Assembly (NCBI RefSeq): GCF_032854445.1
Contig: NC_088303.1
Coordinates: forward strand, 15,259,501 to 15,323,500
Source of the DNA: Liolophura sinensis
Lineage: Eukaryota > Mollusca > Polyplacophora > Chitonida > Chitonidae
DNA: 64,000 nucleotides
Direction: 5' to 3'
Below the pieces are notes generated by a model that made no database searches, was not told the origin of the DNA, and saw only the letters and a list, made by a program, of their open reading frames with translations. Positions within the stretch are counted from its first letter, which is position 1. Each line of letters begins with the position of its first letter. This document shows, piece after piece, positions 5,401-63,440 of this stretch. The translations under genes and the position numbers were made by a program.

Positions 5401-8400
5401 AAACAGAGCAAACATAAAATCTCACTCAGAGTAAAATCTGATATCGAAAATATGCTCGCAGAACATGAAAACGTTTCCCCAAACGAGGTGGAAATCGCCG
5501 GTTTCTATAACAAACTTCCAGGCGTAAAGCTGCATCTTACTAACCATCAGAAGCTGGATTCGAACTCTGACCACGGACTGTCGTCTGTGAAGCAAGCTAT
5601 GAGTCAGATGACTATAATACCTACAATTTCAGCTTTTAAGTCAGGAAAAGACTGTAAGACATCGCTGAATTGAAAGAGTGACTTAGCCGTTTTTCTCATG
5701 ATTATGTGTGAAAAACACTCGGATGTATGACTTGGTCGATCATTACATGATTATGTGTGGTTAGAAGTGTGATTTGACCGGTCTTCAAATGATTATGTGT
5801 CATTGGAAGTGTGATTTGACCGGTCTTCAAATGGTTATGTGTGATCGGAAGTGTGACTTCACCGTTCTTCACATGATTGTGTGTGATCGGAGGTGTAACT
5901 TGACCGTTCTTCGCACGATTATGTGTGATTGGATGTGTGACTTGACCGTTCTTCACACGATCATGTGTGATCGGAGGTGTGATTTGACCGTTCTTCACAT
6001 GATTTTTGTGTGGTCGGGGGAGTGATTTGACCGTCCTTCACATGCTTATGTGTAATCGGAAGTGTGAATTGACCGTCCTACAAAATGACTTCGGAATCTT
6101 CACATGATTGCGTGAGGAGATTATGCGATATTAACCCTCACATTATGTTACCTGCTAAATATACCATATGTATGTTTATCTTGTATTTGAAACTGCTTGG
6201 ACGAACAGATCTACATGTGTGCTGTCGGCTGAAATGAGTGAAACGGGCAGTGTCTAAATGGAATTCACGTCGATGAAGTTCGAGGGCTATAGGCCCTTTA
6301 TATACGCTCACCACTGACATGCTCATAAGTGGTGGTATCAAAGGCTGCAAAAATAACAAATTTTACAAAAAAGTAAGAGAAGAATGTATGCGTTGATATA
6401 TATCCCTTTTCTTCACAAGTGGGTATCAGTTTACTGAGCATTTATAAAATAAGTAGACGGTTTCTGGCATTTCCAACAGCTGGTACTCAGATGAAGTGTA
6501 TACAATCGTTTATCTGACCGCGGGTTACTAACCTATCGTGACTGGGTCTTCACCTGGAATTTACCGTACCTACATATATACCTACAACAACTCTCTTCCC
6601 AAGGCAGAAAGTTTGTTTTCTTATTTATCTAATGCGTTCAGTCAAATGATGGGCAGCTGGTCCGTGGATTAGCGGACTGCGAGCTATAGGGCTGATGGAG
6701 AGAGGGGCCACAAATCATCTGGTCGCCCAGCTGGAAGTTGTCAGAAGAGCAAATGAGAGCGATGAGCGGGGTAGGGGAGATAAGACTAAACCATACACCT
6801 AGCATACACACTGCCGGCCTATTGCTCATGATTACAACTGAATATTTCAAGATCATTGACATAGTTAACCTGATGAAATTAAATTAAAGTAGAGCTGTGA
6901 AATTAATGATGTCACCCAGTCTCATGCTTTTTATGGAAATATTTGACTGTTACATCAACAGTTTTATCTATACACGTGTATACACCCACATTTGAGAGAA
7001 GAGAAAAGGCCTCCCGATTGCGAAGTCAAACTTGTTTCTGTCAATTATTTAGTTTAAATGTTTATGAATTATGTAATGTCAGCACAATACCTTATGTGTT
7101 CTATGTGCTGACGACTTATATCATAATTTGTGGGATAACCAACCTCAACTTCGTAAATTATAGACTGATCTGATAAATTACATTAAATTAGATTAGCTTT
7201 TTGATCTAAAAGTAAGTTAGATTGGGGATAGAAGTCCAAAGATTGCTGAACTGAACTGCCCATTCCCCCCCCCCCCCCCCCCTCCAAAGTGTAGCACTGG
7301 CAGAAGTGGAAGTGGTTACAGAAACATGAAAGAAAAATGTAACAAGAAACATGTGAACGCATCTTGTACCATTCACTAATCACAAGTGATTCTATAGTAC
7401 AGTTCCTTCTGTAATAAATTTGTAAAAAAATGAGTAGAATATAACACGTGCCTTGAAAATACAGATCAAACGCATGCAGTTAAAGACAAATGTTTGCAAT
7501 ATCAGCATCCACAGGGAGAGTAAGTATTGCCTTCATAAATCGGCAATGGGGAACATTGTTCATAATTATACAACAGGTCGGTCCAAGGTTTTGCTCTTAT
7601 CTGTTATACGTAACCATTTTTGCATAGTCTTGCTCGTAAACAAGGAGCTAGTTCCAAACTACTGCATCGTAACGGTACACAACGGTGTGTTTCTCTATAG
7701 CTTGGATCCGGCGTGTGAAGGCGGGGAATGATCAGCGATCTCGCTGGTTGTGTTAATTGTTCCCGTTGAGGATATTGAGGCCTGTAAAATCCCGAAGCCT
7801 ACAGATGTCCATCATTAAAATACCAAAACTGTTAGAAATGTGAGTGCTAAGTGAGCAAATCATTCAAGCTGGTGATAAAGTGCTGGACAAGATTAGTTTG
7901 TTGCTTTAGAAATCAAGTGAGAATTTAACGGCTCAGTGGAACTTACGACTATGTTATAACATGCCTCGCCAGAATCAACAAGAGTGATGACATCGTCACC
8001 ATGGCTGTCGGTATGAGCTCAGCACGTGGTAACATGGTAACGATTACCGCATGGTGACGTGTGCGAGTGTTACGTCACTGTTTTGATAACTTGACCTGAG
8101 CACGAGATATTTGCTGGTTTGGGGCGACGAGGAAAGGAACACTGTGCCTAACAGTTGTCGGTGTTTGGAGAACATTATCTGATTTCAGCCTGGATAACAG
8201 CAAGGAACGGACGATTAACTAGTGACGCCTTTAATACTTCTCAACTTTTTATATACACGACTACTTTGGAGTTCTGAAGAAAAGCTTTCGGGCAACTGAA
8301 GTGAAGTGCAAGGAGGCGCCATTTACCTTGCCGTATCATGCATTAGAGCTTACAGATATAAACTTTGCAGTTTAGAGCTTCTTACAAAGACTACCTCAGA

Positions 8401-11400
8401 GGATTTTAATAAATATCTATATGACCCATCTGAAACACGCAAATATGCCTGCCTTGATATTCGAACTTCATATTATTTGACCTCGTATCCTATAAAGTTA
8501 CGCTATATAATAGAGTACCTGCACGGCTGGACTATATGTACTTGACATGCACTGGCGGAACAGTGTGCTTGACGTGCCCAACCAGAACATCTTTGCTTGA
8601 TACTCACTGTCGGAACCAGTGAGCTTGGCGTGCATTGTCGGGGCCAGTGTGCTTGCCGTGAACTGTCAGAACCAGTGTGCTTGCCGTGAACTGTCCGAAC
8701 CAGTGTGATTGTCGTGCACTGTCAGAACCAATGTGCTTGCCTTGAACTGTCGGAACCAGTGTGCGTGATGCTCTGTCAGAACCAGTGTGCTTGACGTACA
8801 CTGCCAGATCGAGCACACATTCATCAAGACTTTTTTCAAAATCCCGAGTTGCTTCACAGCTCCTATTGTCCAAAACAACGAAAGCAAGCTTTCCGTGGCG
8901 GTTTGACTGCGGAAAGAGACATCTGCGGCGCAGACCTAAAAGAAACAGGCTGTGGGAAATATTTGGTATTTTCCTCATGTGATATGCTTCTGCCATTTTG
9001 TAAACAGCTAGATAGATAGAAGTGATGTTCAGCCACCGCTATCTGCTCGACTTTACGTCACATCTACCCACCGGCGTCTCGACGGGTGTATCCAATGTAT
9101 GTTTTGTTTACCGCTGCCACAATTTCTTTATTTCATCAGCAAGAGAAAACAATGTTGATGGAAGGGATCTGATTTCGCCGTGTACAAATACCCAAGGTGA
9201 TCTCCAATGAGAAAACAAACACCCTCAGAGGGATTTTTAAACAGTTTCCGCATAGGCGGTATCATCTTACGGATATCCATAGGCCAACTTTCATACGATC
9301 AATAACAGTCGGTCGGCCTCTATTCAAAGAACGCTAATCACTGGAATATGAATCCCTTGTTGGCAAAAAGACACAAACGTCTTTTACCATTCATACTGTA
9401 TCTGCAGCCCTTATTGTCTCGTTACATTTGTATATTATTTGACGGCTGTTAATGTTCTGTTTCGCAGACTTGTCTACACTGAGGTGTCAAAAACAACACT
9501 TCACTGTTTTATCACGAAACATGCCATATAAGTTGACTTAAGATTTTTTTACCCAGTTTATGAGTGTTTCATCTAGAGAATATAACTGAAATTATAAACC
9601 AACGATTTGAGAGTAAATGCATTTGAAAATGAGATTAAATTGTACAGAATCTTCTCCGGCTTTCTGTGCCACACGTTTCCTTCCACACTTAACAGTCTTC
9701 TCTTAGAGAAACACTTATGGTGTATGATGATGTCTTTCTGAGATATCGCATAAACATTTGTAAACAAGTGATAACGTATAGAGATGTGGCTTTAAGAATA
9801 CCGTTTATAACCGACCATTTCCGATTATAGCCGAAAAGTACCGAGTGATAATAGTCAAGCCTGAATTCCGTGGCAGGTGATCTATTCTATAGTATACGCT
9901 AATGACCTGGTAGCTGGGACCGGTCTGGCGTCTGAGTGGCCGGCGAGAAAATTTTACAGAAAAAAAGTTGATACGGTCGAAAATACATTGGAAGTACTTG
10001 TTTTCTGAATTAAGAGCAACAGCTGCTGTATTTAAAGTTCTGCATGCCTTTCCCCTTTTCCCAAAACGCTGTATATACCATTTTCCCGAAAAGGCATTTT
10101 GGCGGTGTGATCCGTTAAGGTATAACAGCTGTGTTTCGTTGAAGAATATAGAGCCGTTATTATCTCTTCTATCTGTGAACTTTGAAATGTATTCCCCTGG
10201 CATTTTAAACCAAGAACTCTTACAATCAGACATATCAGTAGTTATACTCAGGTTCAAACTGGAGCCACCGTACGCATTGACGTGATGTACGTGTCACTAC
10301 GCACAATGCGGTCTGCATGTATATGATGTAGCAAGGAGTTCGAAAAATTCAGAGGAAGACGGAAAAGTACCTCAGGAACAAACCTCTCCATGAATGCACA
10401 GATTGAACCCGAACTATATTATTTACGCGAAAGAGCTTTTCTTTTCGGAAATTACATGTGTCTGGAAGGAACACTCATATACAAACGGTGAGAGGCTTGG
10501 AAGTGATAGCATGTCCACTACACTATATTACAAGGAATTTCTCTGCTCCAGCTTGAAGCAAATCCCTGATAGTATCGTAAAACACAAATTTACAAAATTA
10601 ATGAAACCAAAGTCGGGCGTTGACGGCTTGGTAGACATATACACATTCTTGGCAACACATACATTCTCTCCCTATTAGCCTGTCTGATGTTATCCAATCA
10701 TATAACATGTTACTGAAGAAACGTTTTATACCAGCCAGCTACAGTATAAGATTCTTCTATTGCACGCCAGTAGAGGGAGGCTCGATCTCCAATGCAGCAA
10801 TATGTATATATATATTTTTTCTTATCGAATATTTGTTTTTGTAAGAAAATTCGCGTATATATATAAATATATGATATAAGTATTTGTATCAATTTGTGGA
10901 TAAATGGCATAGTTCAGATTAATTCCTTAATTTAATAGTTATACAAGTAAGCCTATAATTTCAAATGACGTATAACAGACATCATAAGCTTGTAATGGAT
11001 GGTTTCTTTCACAGTATATCTTCCTCGTGAATGAAAGATTTCCTCGGCAATGACGATACGAATACAAATCTGCATTTCCATTGCAAATATCTATAGACAT
11101 GTATAAATATTTTGCGCTGAATTCCCGAAAACCAAATCCACAAATCATTATAATCTAGAGCTACATTGCTGGCTTTTTGACAAACTGTTCAACATGATAT
11201 AACAAAGATCCGTCCATTTCCCATATACAGAATTCCTGAATCTGGTGTAAAATTCGAATTAGATCAGCGTGTTAAATGATAACCTGACATAGATTGTACG
11301 CCTTAAATCTAATTATATATGTTACACGTTCTTATATAGAGATGGAAAAGCTAAAATAATCTTTTAAACCTGTAGTCAATTAAAACCCTTAGCCGCAGGG

Positions 11401-39904: not shown

Positions 39905-40475
39905 GGCAGTGGCTACAGTGACTTTTGTCCCGGGCCAGAAAATGGCTTGCCGAAAGGTCATTCAGAAAGTGACTAGAGATTTAATTGCACCACCATAACC
40001 ACCCAAAAAGTGGCTAGAGATGTGTCATATAACCACCTAGAAAATGGCTAAAGACGTTTCCCATAATCACCCAGAAAGTAACTAAAAACGTGTATGTCCC
40101 ATAACCACCCAGAAAGTGGCTAAAGACGTTTCCCATAACCACCCAACAAGTGGCAAAAGACGTGCCCCATAACCACCCAGAAAGTGGCTAAAGACGCGTA
40201 TGTCCCATAACCACCCAGAAAGTGGCTAAAGACGTGTATGTCTCATAACCACCCAGAAAGTGACTAAAGACGTGTCCCATAATGCATCCAGAAAGTGGGT
40301 AAAGACGCTCCCCATAATGCATCCAGAAACTGGCTATAAAGACGTGTCCCATAGTGCATCCAAAAACTGTCTCTAGAGACTTGTCCGGCGTTCTCGCACA
40401 AAGGGAAAGTGGCGTACGACCGTCAAGATCCCCCAAAACGTGACTAGAGATCTGGTCCAAGACCACCTAGAAATT
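39905..40475. repeat. Minisatellite, unit 32-38 bp, about 14 copies
   Basis: Units of CCATAACCACCCAGAAAGTG plus GCTAAAGACGTG, with or without an inserted TATGT, so the period is variable. Copies on the right drift to CATAATGCATCCAGAAA. Confidence 0.94.
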
Positions 40476-43521: not shown

Positions 43522-43689
43522 AGGGCCTGACATGCGATTACCACGAGCCAGCGCTTTGAACGTCACAACCAGAAAGAAATCCGTCCATTTTATATCTGGA
43601 GTGTGGATCTGCACAGAAAATACTTATAGTCGTGAGCAGATGAACAACTGTAATAACTGTAATAAGGAAACTGTAATTACCCAAGGCTT

Positions 43690-60370: not shown

Positions 60371-60589
60371 TGACTATAATGCCTCTAAGGAGTGGCCTCT
60401 ATCTGTGTTTGTGCTATTGTTTCAAGCCCTTGAGTTTTCCGATTACACTCACAGCCACACGTTATCGCACACTACGTTGTTTAAGGCAGTTCCTCTGGCT
60501 GAATATATACCTATCAACATGCATTACACACATGAAAGGATCGCCCTACGTCTATGTCGACTTCAAGTCTACTTCAAGTGTTAACCTGT

Positions 60590-60925
60590 CGGACCTGAAA
60601 CCAGCAAACAACAACTGAAGGACCTGAAGCCACCAAACAACAACTGAAGGACCTGAAGCCACCAAACAACAACTGAAGGACCTGAAGCCAGCAAACAACA
60701 ACTGAAGGACCTGAAGCCAGCACACAACAGTTGAAGGACCTGAAACCGGCAAACAACAACTGAAGGACCTGAAGCCAGCACACAACAGTTGAAGGACCTG
60801 AAGCCGGCAAACAACAACTGAAGGACCTGAAGCCATCAAACAACAACTGAAGGACCTGAAGCCACCAAACAACAGCTGAAGGTTCTTAAGCCAACAAACA
60901 AAAGCGTAAGGCCCAGGAGCCAACT
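60590..60925. repeat. Minisatellite, 29-bp unit, about 11 copies
   Basis: Units of CTGAAGGACCTGAAGCCAGC plus AAACAACAA. Because 29 is not a multiple of three, all three minus-strand frames stay open over 87-bp super-periods, producing three overlapping open frames of 78-123 codons that are artefacts. Confidence 0.97.
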
Positions 60926-61721
60926 AACATAAAGAAATCTGCTGCAGATCAACGCGGAACAAAGCCAAGTACACTTGCTTATTCTTGAGAAATATTACTC
61001 TATATTTATTTACTACACTTCCTTTAAATCACAATTAAACGTGGCGAAACGAAAGGCCAATGATATCTATGAAATGAACCCTTCCCCCGAAACGATCGAT
61101 TTGCTCAAACAGCTGATACGAACTTGGCAAACTTTTTAGCCTTTGTTCATAGCCTGGTAAATATGACGGCTACTAAATTCCATAAGACTAAAGTGACACG
61201 GGACTTTTAAAAGATAGTTGAGGATGTCCACGGCGTAACCGAATTACCAGGTGGTGACCTAAACCTCTGGTGTAGATCTGAAGCGCACATTCAGAAGCTT
61301 CTGCGAGTTGACCTACTGAACTCATACCGAGCCACAAATACAGTGCACAGAACAATGCAAAGGCGTGATATATGGCATTGACAGCTGTGTATGGATACCA
61401 CATCAACACCCAGCGTCCTGCTCGTGTTTATTAAAATTGCAATTATACAAAACCTGCCTGTGCAAACTGCAAACACAGTCATTCAGTAGGCTGTAAAGGG
61501 AACGAAGCATACAAAAGACCCAAAACAACTGAATTTATAAAAGCAGATATAGGGGTGAGTAACGCGGAAACTGTCGAACAAGACAACCAGACACAAAAAC
61601 TCACTAAACAAAGTGTGTCGTCAAATCGTAACACTACGATTACAAAGGCATCGCAAAAGGCCGAACACGAAAATTCCGCACCACAAACAGAAGAAGAAGA
61701 AACTGTAATAATGCTTTTTAA

Positions 61722-61799
61722 TACCATAATGCCGGCCGCCATCGTATAAGTGAAATATTCTTGAGTACGGCGTTAAACACCAATCAAATAAATAAATAG
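61722..61799 (+). repeat. SINE-A 3' end inserted in the LINE
   Basis: ACCATAATGCCGGCCGCCAT, CGTATAAGTGAAATATTCTT, GAGTACGGCGTTAAACACCA and an AATAAATAAATAG tail. It lies exactly between the gag and endonuclease remnants, where about 600 bases of endonuclease are missing. Confidence 0.9.
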
Positions 61800-61868
61800 T
61801 TAGAGCAGCACAGCTCAGTTTCGCTAAATGACAGCGAGGGCACAAGAATAGACTTTGGCACAAGTAAC

Positions 61869-62416
61869 ACCATGGTCATAGATCTCACTATATCACTATA
61901 CCCCTGATCTCGCCCCTGAACCAGACTGGCATGTTATACCAGACACACCATGGTCATAGATCTCACTATATCACTATACTCCTGATCTCGCCCCTGAACC
62001 AGACTGGCATGTTATACCAGACACATCATGGTCATAGATCTCACTATATCACTATACTCCTGATCTCGCCCCTGAACCAGACTGGCATGTTATACCAGAC
62101 ACACCATAGTCATAGATCTCACTATATCACTATACTCCTGATCTCGCCCCTGAACCAGACTGGCATGTTATACCAGACACACCATGGTCATAGATCTCAC
62201 TATATCACTATACTCCTGATCTCGCCCCTGAACCAGACTGGCATGTTATACCAGACACACCATAGTCATAGATCTCACTATATCACTATACTCCTGATCT
62301 CGCCCCTGAACCAGACTGGCATGTTATACCAGACACATCATGGTCATAGATCTCACTATATCACTATACTCCTGATCTCGCCCCTGAACCAGACTGGCAT
62401 GTTATACCAGACACAC
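61869..62416. repeat. Minisatellite of 78-bp units, 7 copies, made from LINE endonuclease sequence
   Basis: Unit starts CCATGGTCATAGATCTCACT and ends ATGTTATACCAGACACA. Copies are nearly identical, differing at two or three sites (CACCA/CATCA, TGG/TAG). 78 is 26 codons, so an unrelated frame stays open for 172 codons; that frame is not the endonuclease frame and I do not call it a gene. Confidence 0.97.
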
Positions 62417-63440
62417 TTTGGCAGTGACCACTTCGCCATCCTAAACTGAACTTTGTAGGTCACCTCAAATGGAAGTAAACTCTAACAACCCTGAACAAAC
62501 CTAACTGGGGAATTTTTAAAAAAATTACCAAAATATATCTGTTGACGACGACTGCTTAGATATAGACTTATTCAAACAAAATTTAACTGATGCTCTACTC
62601 AGCAGTGCAGGAAAACACTCTATTTCGTCACATTATAAAAGATCTACATGTATAAATCCGGTTCCAGGACGGAACAGCGAATACGCGAAAACTGTAAGAA
62701 AAGCAAAGTGTCAATACGGAAATTTAAAAGAATCAGATTTCTAACTCACCACGCAAAAACACCATTATTAAAAGTTGCAGCTTTTAAGTCAGTCACTCTT
62801 GCAAAAGCCAAATACTGGGATGACTATTGTGACATGATATATACAACAACAACAAAGAAAAAAACAAATCAAAGCAAAACCAAACATTTGTAAGGCAAAG
62901 CAATCAACCAAATCCCAGTTCTGTATCGCGAACACAAAACCAATCGGGCGGGGGATGGAGAGCTGAATGCTTCGCCACATCCTTCGCTGATAAAAGCAGG
63001 TACCGAAATTTTAATCCCTCTTTAAACCAAATCAAGGATAACACAGTTTTACAAAAGGACTCCGACGCCCACGCGGAGCCTTATCTTAACAAAGACATGA
63101 ATATCAGAGAGCCCTTCACTGCAAAAAGGAAACCTCGCCAAGTGAAGACAAAGTAGGCCACAAAATTCTTAAACCTTTACCATTAAAACCACGAAACATA
63201 ATACCGGTACTGAAACTGATAAATACAAGTCGGATAGAAAGACAGCTCCCACAAACTTGGAAATCGTTCGTTGTCACACCCATTTCCAAAACCCGGAAAA
63301 AATTCATCAGACAACTCCTACCGCCCAGTGTAACTCACCTCATGTTTCTGTAAACTACTGGAAACCATGGTTGAAAACAGGCTAGAATTTCCCATAAACA
63401 AGAATATTTTGAGCGTACAAAGTAGATTGAGAAAAGATTT

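What the first reader, a model, noticed from the sequence alone, without database searches (positions are those of the whole stretch)
61803..62450. A 78-bp minisatellite born inside a LINE endonuclease domain
Just before the array the sequence reads like a LINE endonuclease (LNDSEGTRIDFGTSNTMVIDLTIS); just after it comes GSDHFAIL, the SDH motif that ends such domains. One unit holds exactly the segment that should lie between (DLTIS, then PDLAPEPDWHVIPDT in the next frame). So 26 codons of the domain were amplified seven times. Every copy carries the same one-base shift between DLTIS and PDLAPE, so the element was already dead when the array grew. Minisatellite birth from a defined transposon protein segment is rarely caught this clearly.
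Basis: partly seen in the sequence, partly recalled or inferred. Interest (0 to 1): 0.78.

Follow-up and report, generated by a model that had tools for sequence, protein, structure and literature searches.

The report
Young minisatellite inside a dead LINE
A 78-base stretch of a long-dead jumping gene was recently copied head-to-tail seven times at one place in an animal genome, a clean example of a process already well known from humans and other species.

Summary
Window 61867-62416 is a seven-unit, 78-bp array, 98% uniform, inside the endonuclease part of a decayed non-LTR retrotransposon. The genome holds well-preserved relatives (L003: open frames of 385 and 1089 codons, the second with endonuclease, reverse transcriptase and RNase H). 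In 28 of 28 relatives that I aligned the segment is single-copy and lacks a 4-bp insertion shared by all seven units. The unit is about as diverged from L001-L003 as its flanks (K 0.30 against 0.31-0.33; only 74 sites), but units differ among themselves by 0.016: the array looks much younger than the element's decay. Its ends share only 3-4 bp (ACACT, 5 bp, in 21 of 28 relatives), which fits slippage or microhomology-mediated duplication, but such repeats are common in the element. TE-derived minisatellites are a known kind: 7,276 of 31,472 in human, 601 associated with L1 (PMC3389668). Real and tidy, but ordinary.

The parts
61038..61713 (+). Decayed ORF1 of the non-LTR retrotransposon (matches L003 ORF1 residues 16-132 and 225-311 in pieces, in several frames, with stops)
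   Evidence: blastn; tblastn
61723..61798 (+). Tail of a different, very abundant dispersed repeat (SINE-like, ending in AAATAAATAAAT), standing where the first ~177 codons of ORF2 should be
   Evidence: 2050 first-look candidates, 40 scored; besides the window, 39 matches at 93-99% identity and one at 87%. Also
61796..61866 (+). Remnant of the ORF2 endonuclease domain left of the array
61867..62412 (+). Array: seven 78-bp units, each = 74 bp of native endonuclease segment (ORF2 about residues 204-227) + 4-bp insertion; order of variants a b c d b d c
62413..62416 (+). Four bases (ACAC) after the last unit that repeat the start of units 1, 2, 4, 5 and 6 (units 3 and 7 begin ACAT): the junction microhomology
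   Evidence: chance estimates
62417..63436 (+). Decayed remainder of ORF2: SDH end of the endonuclease, linker and N-terminal reverse transcriptase; homology ends at about 63436

Best explanation
It is a locus-specific minisatellite that arose in place from a 78-bp stretch of one dead, internally deleted copy of a non-LTR retrotransposon whose relatives encode an ORF1 and an ORF2 with endonuclease, reverse transcriptase and RNase H. Shown: the single-copy 74-bp segment in the aligned relatives, the 4-bp insertion shared by all seven units, unit divergence like flank divergence, low divergence among units, and no second array in the unit search. Inferred: a first tandem duplication by replication slippage or microhomology-mediated repair between ACAC-containing ends about 78 bp apart, then expansion to seven units by slippage, unequal exchange or gene conversion over the now nearly perfect 78-bp repeats (variants c and d each occur in two non-adjacent units, so growth was probably not purely one unit at a time from one end). 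No function is indicated.
For: Seven units, 98% uniform. Unit search of the whole genome: 31 matches, of which 7 are this array and 24 are dispersed places at 79-82% identity. 28 of 28 aligned relatives have one copy and no 4-bp insertion. Well-preserved source elements: L003 open frames of 385 and 1089 codons, stop to stop, with Exo_endo_phos_2 and RVT_1 and RNase_H; the endonuclease matches the TRAS1, R1Bm and L1 endonuclease structures at E 3e-5 to 9e-4. K of the majority unit against L001-L003 0.301, left flank 0.329, right flank 0.311-0.322; within the array 0.016. Ends: 4 bp exact with five of seven units; ACACT at both ends in 21 of 28 relatives.
Against: The end homology is weak: runs of 4 or more bp occur at 2.0%, and of 3 or more at 6.0%, of control junctions; with unit 7 the run is 3 bp, and 6 of 9 bases match, reached by 1.4% of controls. 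L003 holds 236 direct-repeat pairs of 5 bp or more at 60-100 bp spacing, so nothing marks this site out. Unit folding is unremarkable (z = +0.90). The window's own endonuclease peptide scores below Pfam's cut-off (20.9 against 27.4 bits), and three other typed fragments gave no family. The unit comparison rests on 74 sites. Homogenisation could make the array look younger than it is and could have spread the 4-bp insertion after the birth. Copy number rests on one assembly.
Confidence: 0.9

Rival explanations
1. The array is an old feature of a LINE subfamily, was present when the element was active, and was inherited by retrotransposition.
For: Some elements carry internal tandem repeats: PMC3389668 names the L1PA and LTR12 subfamilies. 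The nearest subfamily of the window copy may be poorly sampled: no aligned long relative is closer than K about 0.28 over the right flank.
Against: 28 of 28 aligned relatives are single-copy; the unit search lists no second array (a lower bound); all units carry a frame-breaking insertion; units differ by K 0.016.
Confidence: 0.03
2. The array was born when the copy was still young, and concerted evolution (unequal exchange, gene conversion) has since kept the units alike and fixed the 4-bp insertion in all of them.
For: The mixed order of variants (a b c d b d c) suggests some exchange between units; unit 1, at the edge, has a private base.
Against: All seven units, edge units included, carry the same 4-bp insertion and differ from each other at only three positions; full homogenisation of both edges over so long a decay seems unlikely for so short an array (inference).
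Confidence: 0.07
3. The array is selected as a coding repeat: one frame is open through it (61868-62446, 193 codons).
For: The open frame exists; 78 is a multiple of 3.
Against: With a period divisible by 3, any frame free of stops in one unit is open through all of them, and one such frame among six is expected by chance (about 0.29 each by simple codon counting, not a call). It is not the frame of DLTIS nor of PDLAPE; the flanks are pseudogene.
Confidence: 0.01

Closest known systems
Alu-derived minisatellites (Jurka and Gentles 2006; not seen, only as described in a passage of PMC3389668)
   Same: A piece of a retrotransposon amplified in tandem, with short direct repeats flanking the array.
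   Different: The source here is a LINE coding domain, not a SINE; the end homology is 3-4 bp in the window (5 bp in 21 of 28 relatives).
Human TE-derived tandem repeats, 601 of them associated with L1 (PMC3389668; abstract passages and Results part 1 of 2 read)
   Same: Array within a TE copy, mostly at one locus (5,747 of 5,932 clusters there), local expansion.
   Different: That study links initiation to younger, more active elements; this array appears to have begun in a copy already disabled.
Haber and Louis 1998 model of minisatellite birth (not seen; as described in a passage of PMC6947457)
   Same: Initial duplication between very short repeats flanking a motif, then expansion over the longer repeats.
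   Different: The model cites 5-10 bp repeats; here 3-4 bp remain exact.
LINE-derived satellites, such as PROsat of Phodopus from LINE-1 and chicken Cen satellites from CR1-C (table entries in PMC6947457)
   Same: Tandem DNA derived from a LINE.
   Different: Satellite families, not a seven-unit single locus.
PcH-Sat of the limpet Patella caerulea, proposed to come from a Nin-SINE (PMC11121367; search listing only)
   Same: Tandem DNA derived from a retroposon in an invertebrate.

Membership tests
Minisatellite | Head-to-tail array of units of more than 10 and less than 100 bp (definition in PMC3389668) | tested here: met
   78 bp x 7.1, 98% matches
Minisatellite | Copy number varies between individuals (hypervariable loci only) | not testable with these tools
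   One assembly only
TE-derived tandem repeat | Unit matches a transposable element family present elsewhere in the genome | tested here: met
   24 dispersed matches to the unit; 28 of 28 aligned relatives carry it once
TE-derived tandem repeat | Array lies inside a copy of that element, in register with its flanks | tested here: met
   Left and right flanks align contiguously with the same elements; exceptions among the 28: L012 (left side not homologous), L027 and L006 (deletions)
Birth by slippage, Haber-Louis type | Short direct repeats (5-10 bp) at the two ends of the amplified motif | tested here: inconclusive
   3-4 bp exact in the window, reached by 6.0% and 2.0% of controls; ACACT, 5 bp, in 21 of 28 relatives
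Non-LTR retrotransposon (source element) | ORF2 with endonuclease and reverse transcriptase | tested here: met
   L003 ORF2: PF14529 E 4.4e-22, PF00078 E 3e-40; RNase_H E 5.6e-6. ORF1 matched no Pfam family; its CCHC-like motifs are read by eye
Non-LTR retrotransposon, named clade (I/Jockey group suspected) | Phylogenetic placement of the reverse transcriptase | not tested
   No reference set of named clades at hand; the suspicion from domain order is recalled

The most novel reading that the evidence does not exclude
The minisatellite began in an already dead LINE copy at a 4-bp microhomology, next to a small insertion and a cluster of changes at the unit's left edge (five of the six bases after ACAC differ from most aligned relatives, read by eye). 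These could be the trace of a single polymerase-theta-like repair event that both mutated and duplicated the site: a birth route independent of retrotransposition, in contrast to the human trend that favours young elements.
Probability: 0.12. Interest if true: 0.35.

Novelty: new member of a known kind. Interest (0 to 1): 0.22.

Why it matters
The single-copy form of the segment, a well-preserved source family and the young array can all be read in one genome, so the order of events (element death, 4-bp insertion, amplification) can be argued from sequence. It opens no new question: origin of minisatellites from transposon segments is established.

Tried and rejected
Special folding of the unit as a driver: not supported, z = +0.90. 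End homology as a special signal: only weakly supported; common in the element (236 pairs of 5 bp or more). The array as a coding repeat: expected by chance. The idea that arrays in this window generally come from transposons: not supported. I merged TRF rows into ten places with period 28 or more and about three or more copies, and searched all ten in the genome; only this one had units matching a dispersed family. One other (1-2152) matched only nearby stretches of the same contig. Reservations: for three places (29580, 47475, 52025) the 40 scored candidates, apart from the window itself, were flanking dispersed repeats, so unit matches could have been crowded out, and the tool skips very common words. 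The two arrays of about two copies at 43680 and 46737, and shorter periods, were not searched. TRF on the long relatives listed no array in the endonuclease segment; it listed short ones elsewhere, such as 30 bp x 2.0 in L007 and 64 bp x 2.0 in L008.

Papers: searches returned 5, 7, 4 and 8 papers and none; in the listings (titles and starts of abstracts) I saw none on an array from a LINE endonuclease segment, and I did not read most of them. A search for a SINE-tail string returned none. One search found no paper that identified that tail in its listing.

Limits of counts: all 24 dispersed unit matches were fetched and aligned. Of the 40 other stretches I added four copies (L006, L008, L027, L028) that one search had not listed, which shows that one search is a lower bound; the remaining copies were not fetched. 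In L012 the sequence left of the unit is not homologous, L027 has a deletion at the left edge and L006 lacks the SDH segment; all three stay in the 28. The end-homology count took the best run within two bases of either end: 5 bp in 22, 6 in one, 4 in two, 3 in three; the 5 of L027 and the 6 of L006 are in another register, so ACACT at both ends is 21 of 28. Divergences use eight long relatives only.

Full report
What is there. The array runs from 61867 to 62416: seven complete 78-bp units and four further bases. The units differ at three positions. Unit 1 alone has C at position 36, units 3 and 7 have T at position 4, and units 4 and 6 have A at position 8, which gives the order a b c d b d c.

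What it sits in. The surroundings are a decayed non-LTR retrotransposon. Pieces of ORF1 lie at 61038-61713, a small part of the endonuclease at 61796-61866, then the array, then the SDH end of the endonuclease and the start of the reverse transcriptase up to about 63436. The 5.4 kb beyond the window (L029) showed no convincing continuation of ORF2. About 177 codons of ORF2 and the end of ORF1 are missing. In their place stands a 76-bp tail of another, very abundant repeat (61723-61798): one search had 2050 first-look candidates, scored 40, and listed, besides the window, 39 matches at 93-99% and one at 87% identity.

Relatives. The 1104 bp from 62417 match 40 other stretches in the 609-Mb genome at 69-76% identity (capped at 40 scored of 43 candidates). 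Among the eight that I fetched at length is a young subfamily: L001, L002, L003, L007 and L008 differ from one another by K 0.006-0.015. L003 has stop-to-stop open frames of 385 codons (ORF1) and 1089 codons (ORF2). ORF2 has endonuclease (PF14529, 4.4e-22) and reverse transcriptase (PF00078, 3e-40) and, in its last part, RNase H (PF00075, 5.6e-6); ORF1 matched no Pfam family. Activity was not tested. The endonuclease of L003 is a weak but consistent relative of the solved TRAS1, R1Bm and L1 endonucleases, and the TRAS1 alignment runs through the segment that forms the unit. The window's own peptide, which I joined by hand across frames, reaches PF14529 only below its cut-off (E 0.00033, 20.9 against 27.4 bits), and three other typed fragments of the remnant gave no family.

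The precursor. I aligned the segment from 28 relatives: all 24 dispersed places found with the unit and four more. In 28 of 28 the segment is single-copy, and in 28 of 28 the 4 bp are absent. The spacing between the ends is 74 bp in 23 of 28 by the measure; the others are 72 (two), 75, 77 and 57, some of them because the best run lay in another register or because of deletions. So the unit is 74 native bp plus 4 inserted bp. The insertion explains the frame change between DLTIS and PDLAPE (+4, the same as +1 modulo 3). A further +1 lies between the last unit and GSDHF. Against L003 the window copy (array collapsed to one unit) has 19 indels over the compared stretch, 11 of them not a multiple of 3, whereas L002 against L003 has none. 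Since the window copy is of another subfamily, and the alignment is uncertain in places, not all of these need be lesions.

Timing. The majority unit is about as far from the well-preserved copies as its flanks are: against L001, L002 and L003, K is 0.301 for the unit, 0.329 for the left flank and 0.311-0.322 for the right flank. Over all eight long relatives the ranges are 0.219-0.344, 0.304-0.454 and 0.281-0.341. The unit has only 74 comparable sites, so its K is rough; against L004 and L005 it is closer (0.22) than the flanks. Between units, mean K is 0.016. The unit had therefore collected most of its changes before it was multiplied. Homogenisation could shorten the apparent age, but both edge units carry the insertion, which favours late amplification.

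Mechanism (inferred). Five of seven units begin with ACAC (units 3 and 7: ACAT), and the sequence after the last unit begins with ACAC. Control junctions in this window, arrays excluded, spacing 70-86, have 4 or more matching bp in 2.0% and 3 or more in 6.0% of cases; with unit 7 the observed run is 3 and the 9-base match 6 of 9, which 1.4% of controls reach. ACACT stands at both ends in 21 of 28 relatives. This fits birth by slippage or microhomology-mediated repair but is weak: L003 has 236 direct-repeat pairs of 5 bp or more at 60-100 bp spacing in 4149 bp. The unit has no unusual fold. The non-adjacent twins of c and of d suggest that expansion involved blocks or conversion, not only single-unit additions at one end.

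A coding role is unlikely. One frame is open through the array (193 codons), but this follows from a period divisible by 3 and is expected by chance.

Context. The TRF rows merge into ten places with period 28 or more and about three or more copies. All ten were searched in the genome; only the present array had units matching a dispersed family, with the reservations under Tried and rejected.

What is known. PMC3389668 (abstract passages; Results part 1 of 2) reports that 7,276 of 31,472 human minisatellites/satellites (23%) derive from TEs, 601 of them associated with L1, with 5,747 of 5,932 clusters at a single locus. PMC6947457 (passages) reviews minisatellite origins from Alu, B1 and LTR elements, tabulates LINE-derived satellites, and describes the Haber-Louis model of birth between 5-10 bp repeats. 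The present case is a new example of that kind. Its one nuance is that amplification seems to have begun in a dead copy, whereas the human survey associates initiation with younger, active elements.

Noticed in passing
1-2152: Large 44/83-bp array of about 2.1 kb that continues to the left of the window; related sequence was listed only nearby on the same contig (C9:15254950-15260256).
   Followed up: partly
60591-60901: A second array (29 bp x 10.7) ends about 140 bp upstream of the ORF1 remnant; the stretch 60400-61030 had no other match in the genome search, and blastn found no match of it in the eight long relatives.
   Followed up: partly
61723-61798: Tail of a very abundant SINE-like repeat directly joined to the endonuclease remnant, suggesting an insertion and a deletion of about 0.7-0.9 kb of the LINE.
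   Followed up: partly
61871-61876: Five of the six bases after ACAC at the left edge of the unit differ from most aligned relatives, a local cluster of changes shared by all units apart from the position-8 variant (by eye).
   Followed up: no
5745-6076, 8606-8808, 39993-40353: Three further arrays that, with their flanks, had no other match in the genome search.
   Followed up: partly
L008:4238-4366: A 64-bp x 2.0 tandem duplication near another copy of the same LINE family; whether it lies inside the element was not determined.
   Followed up: no
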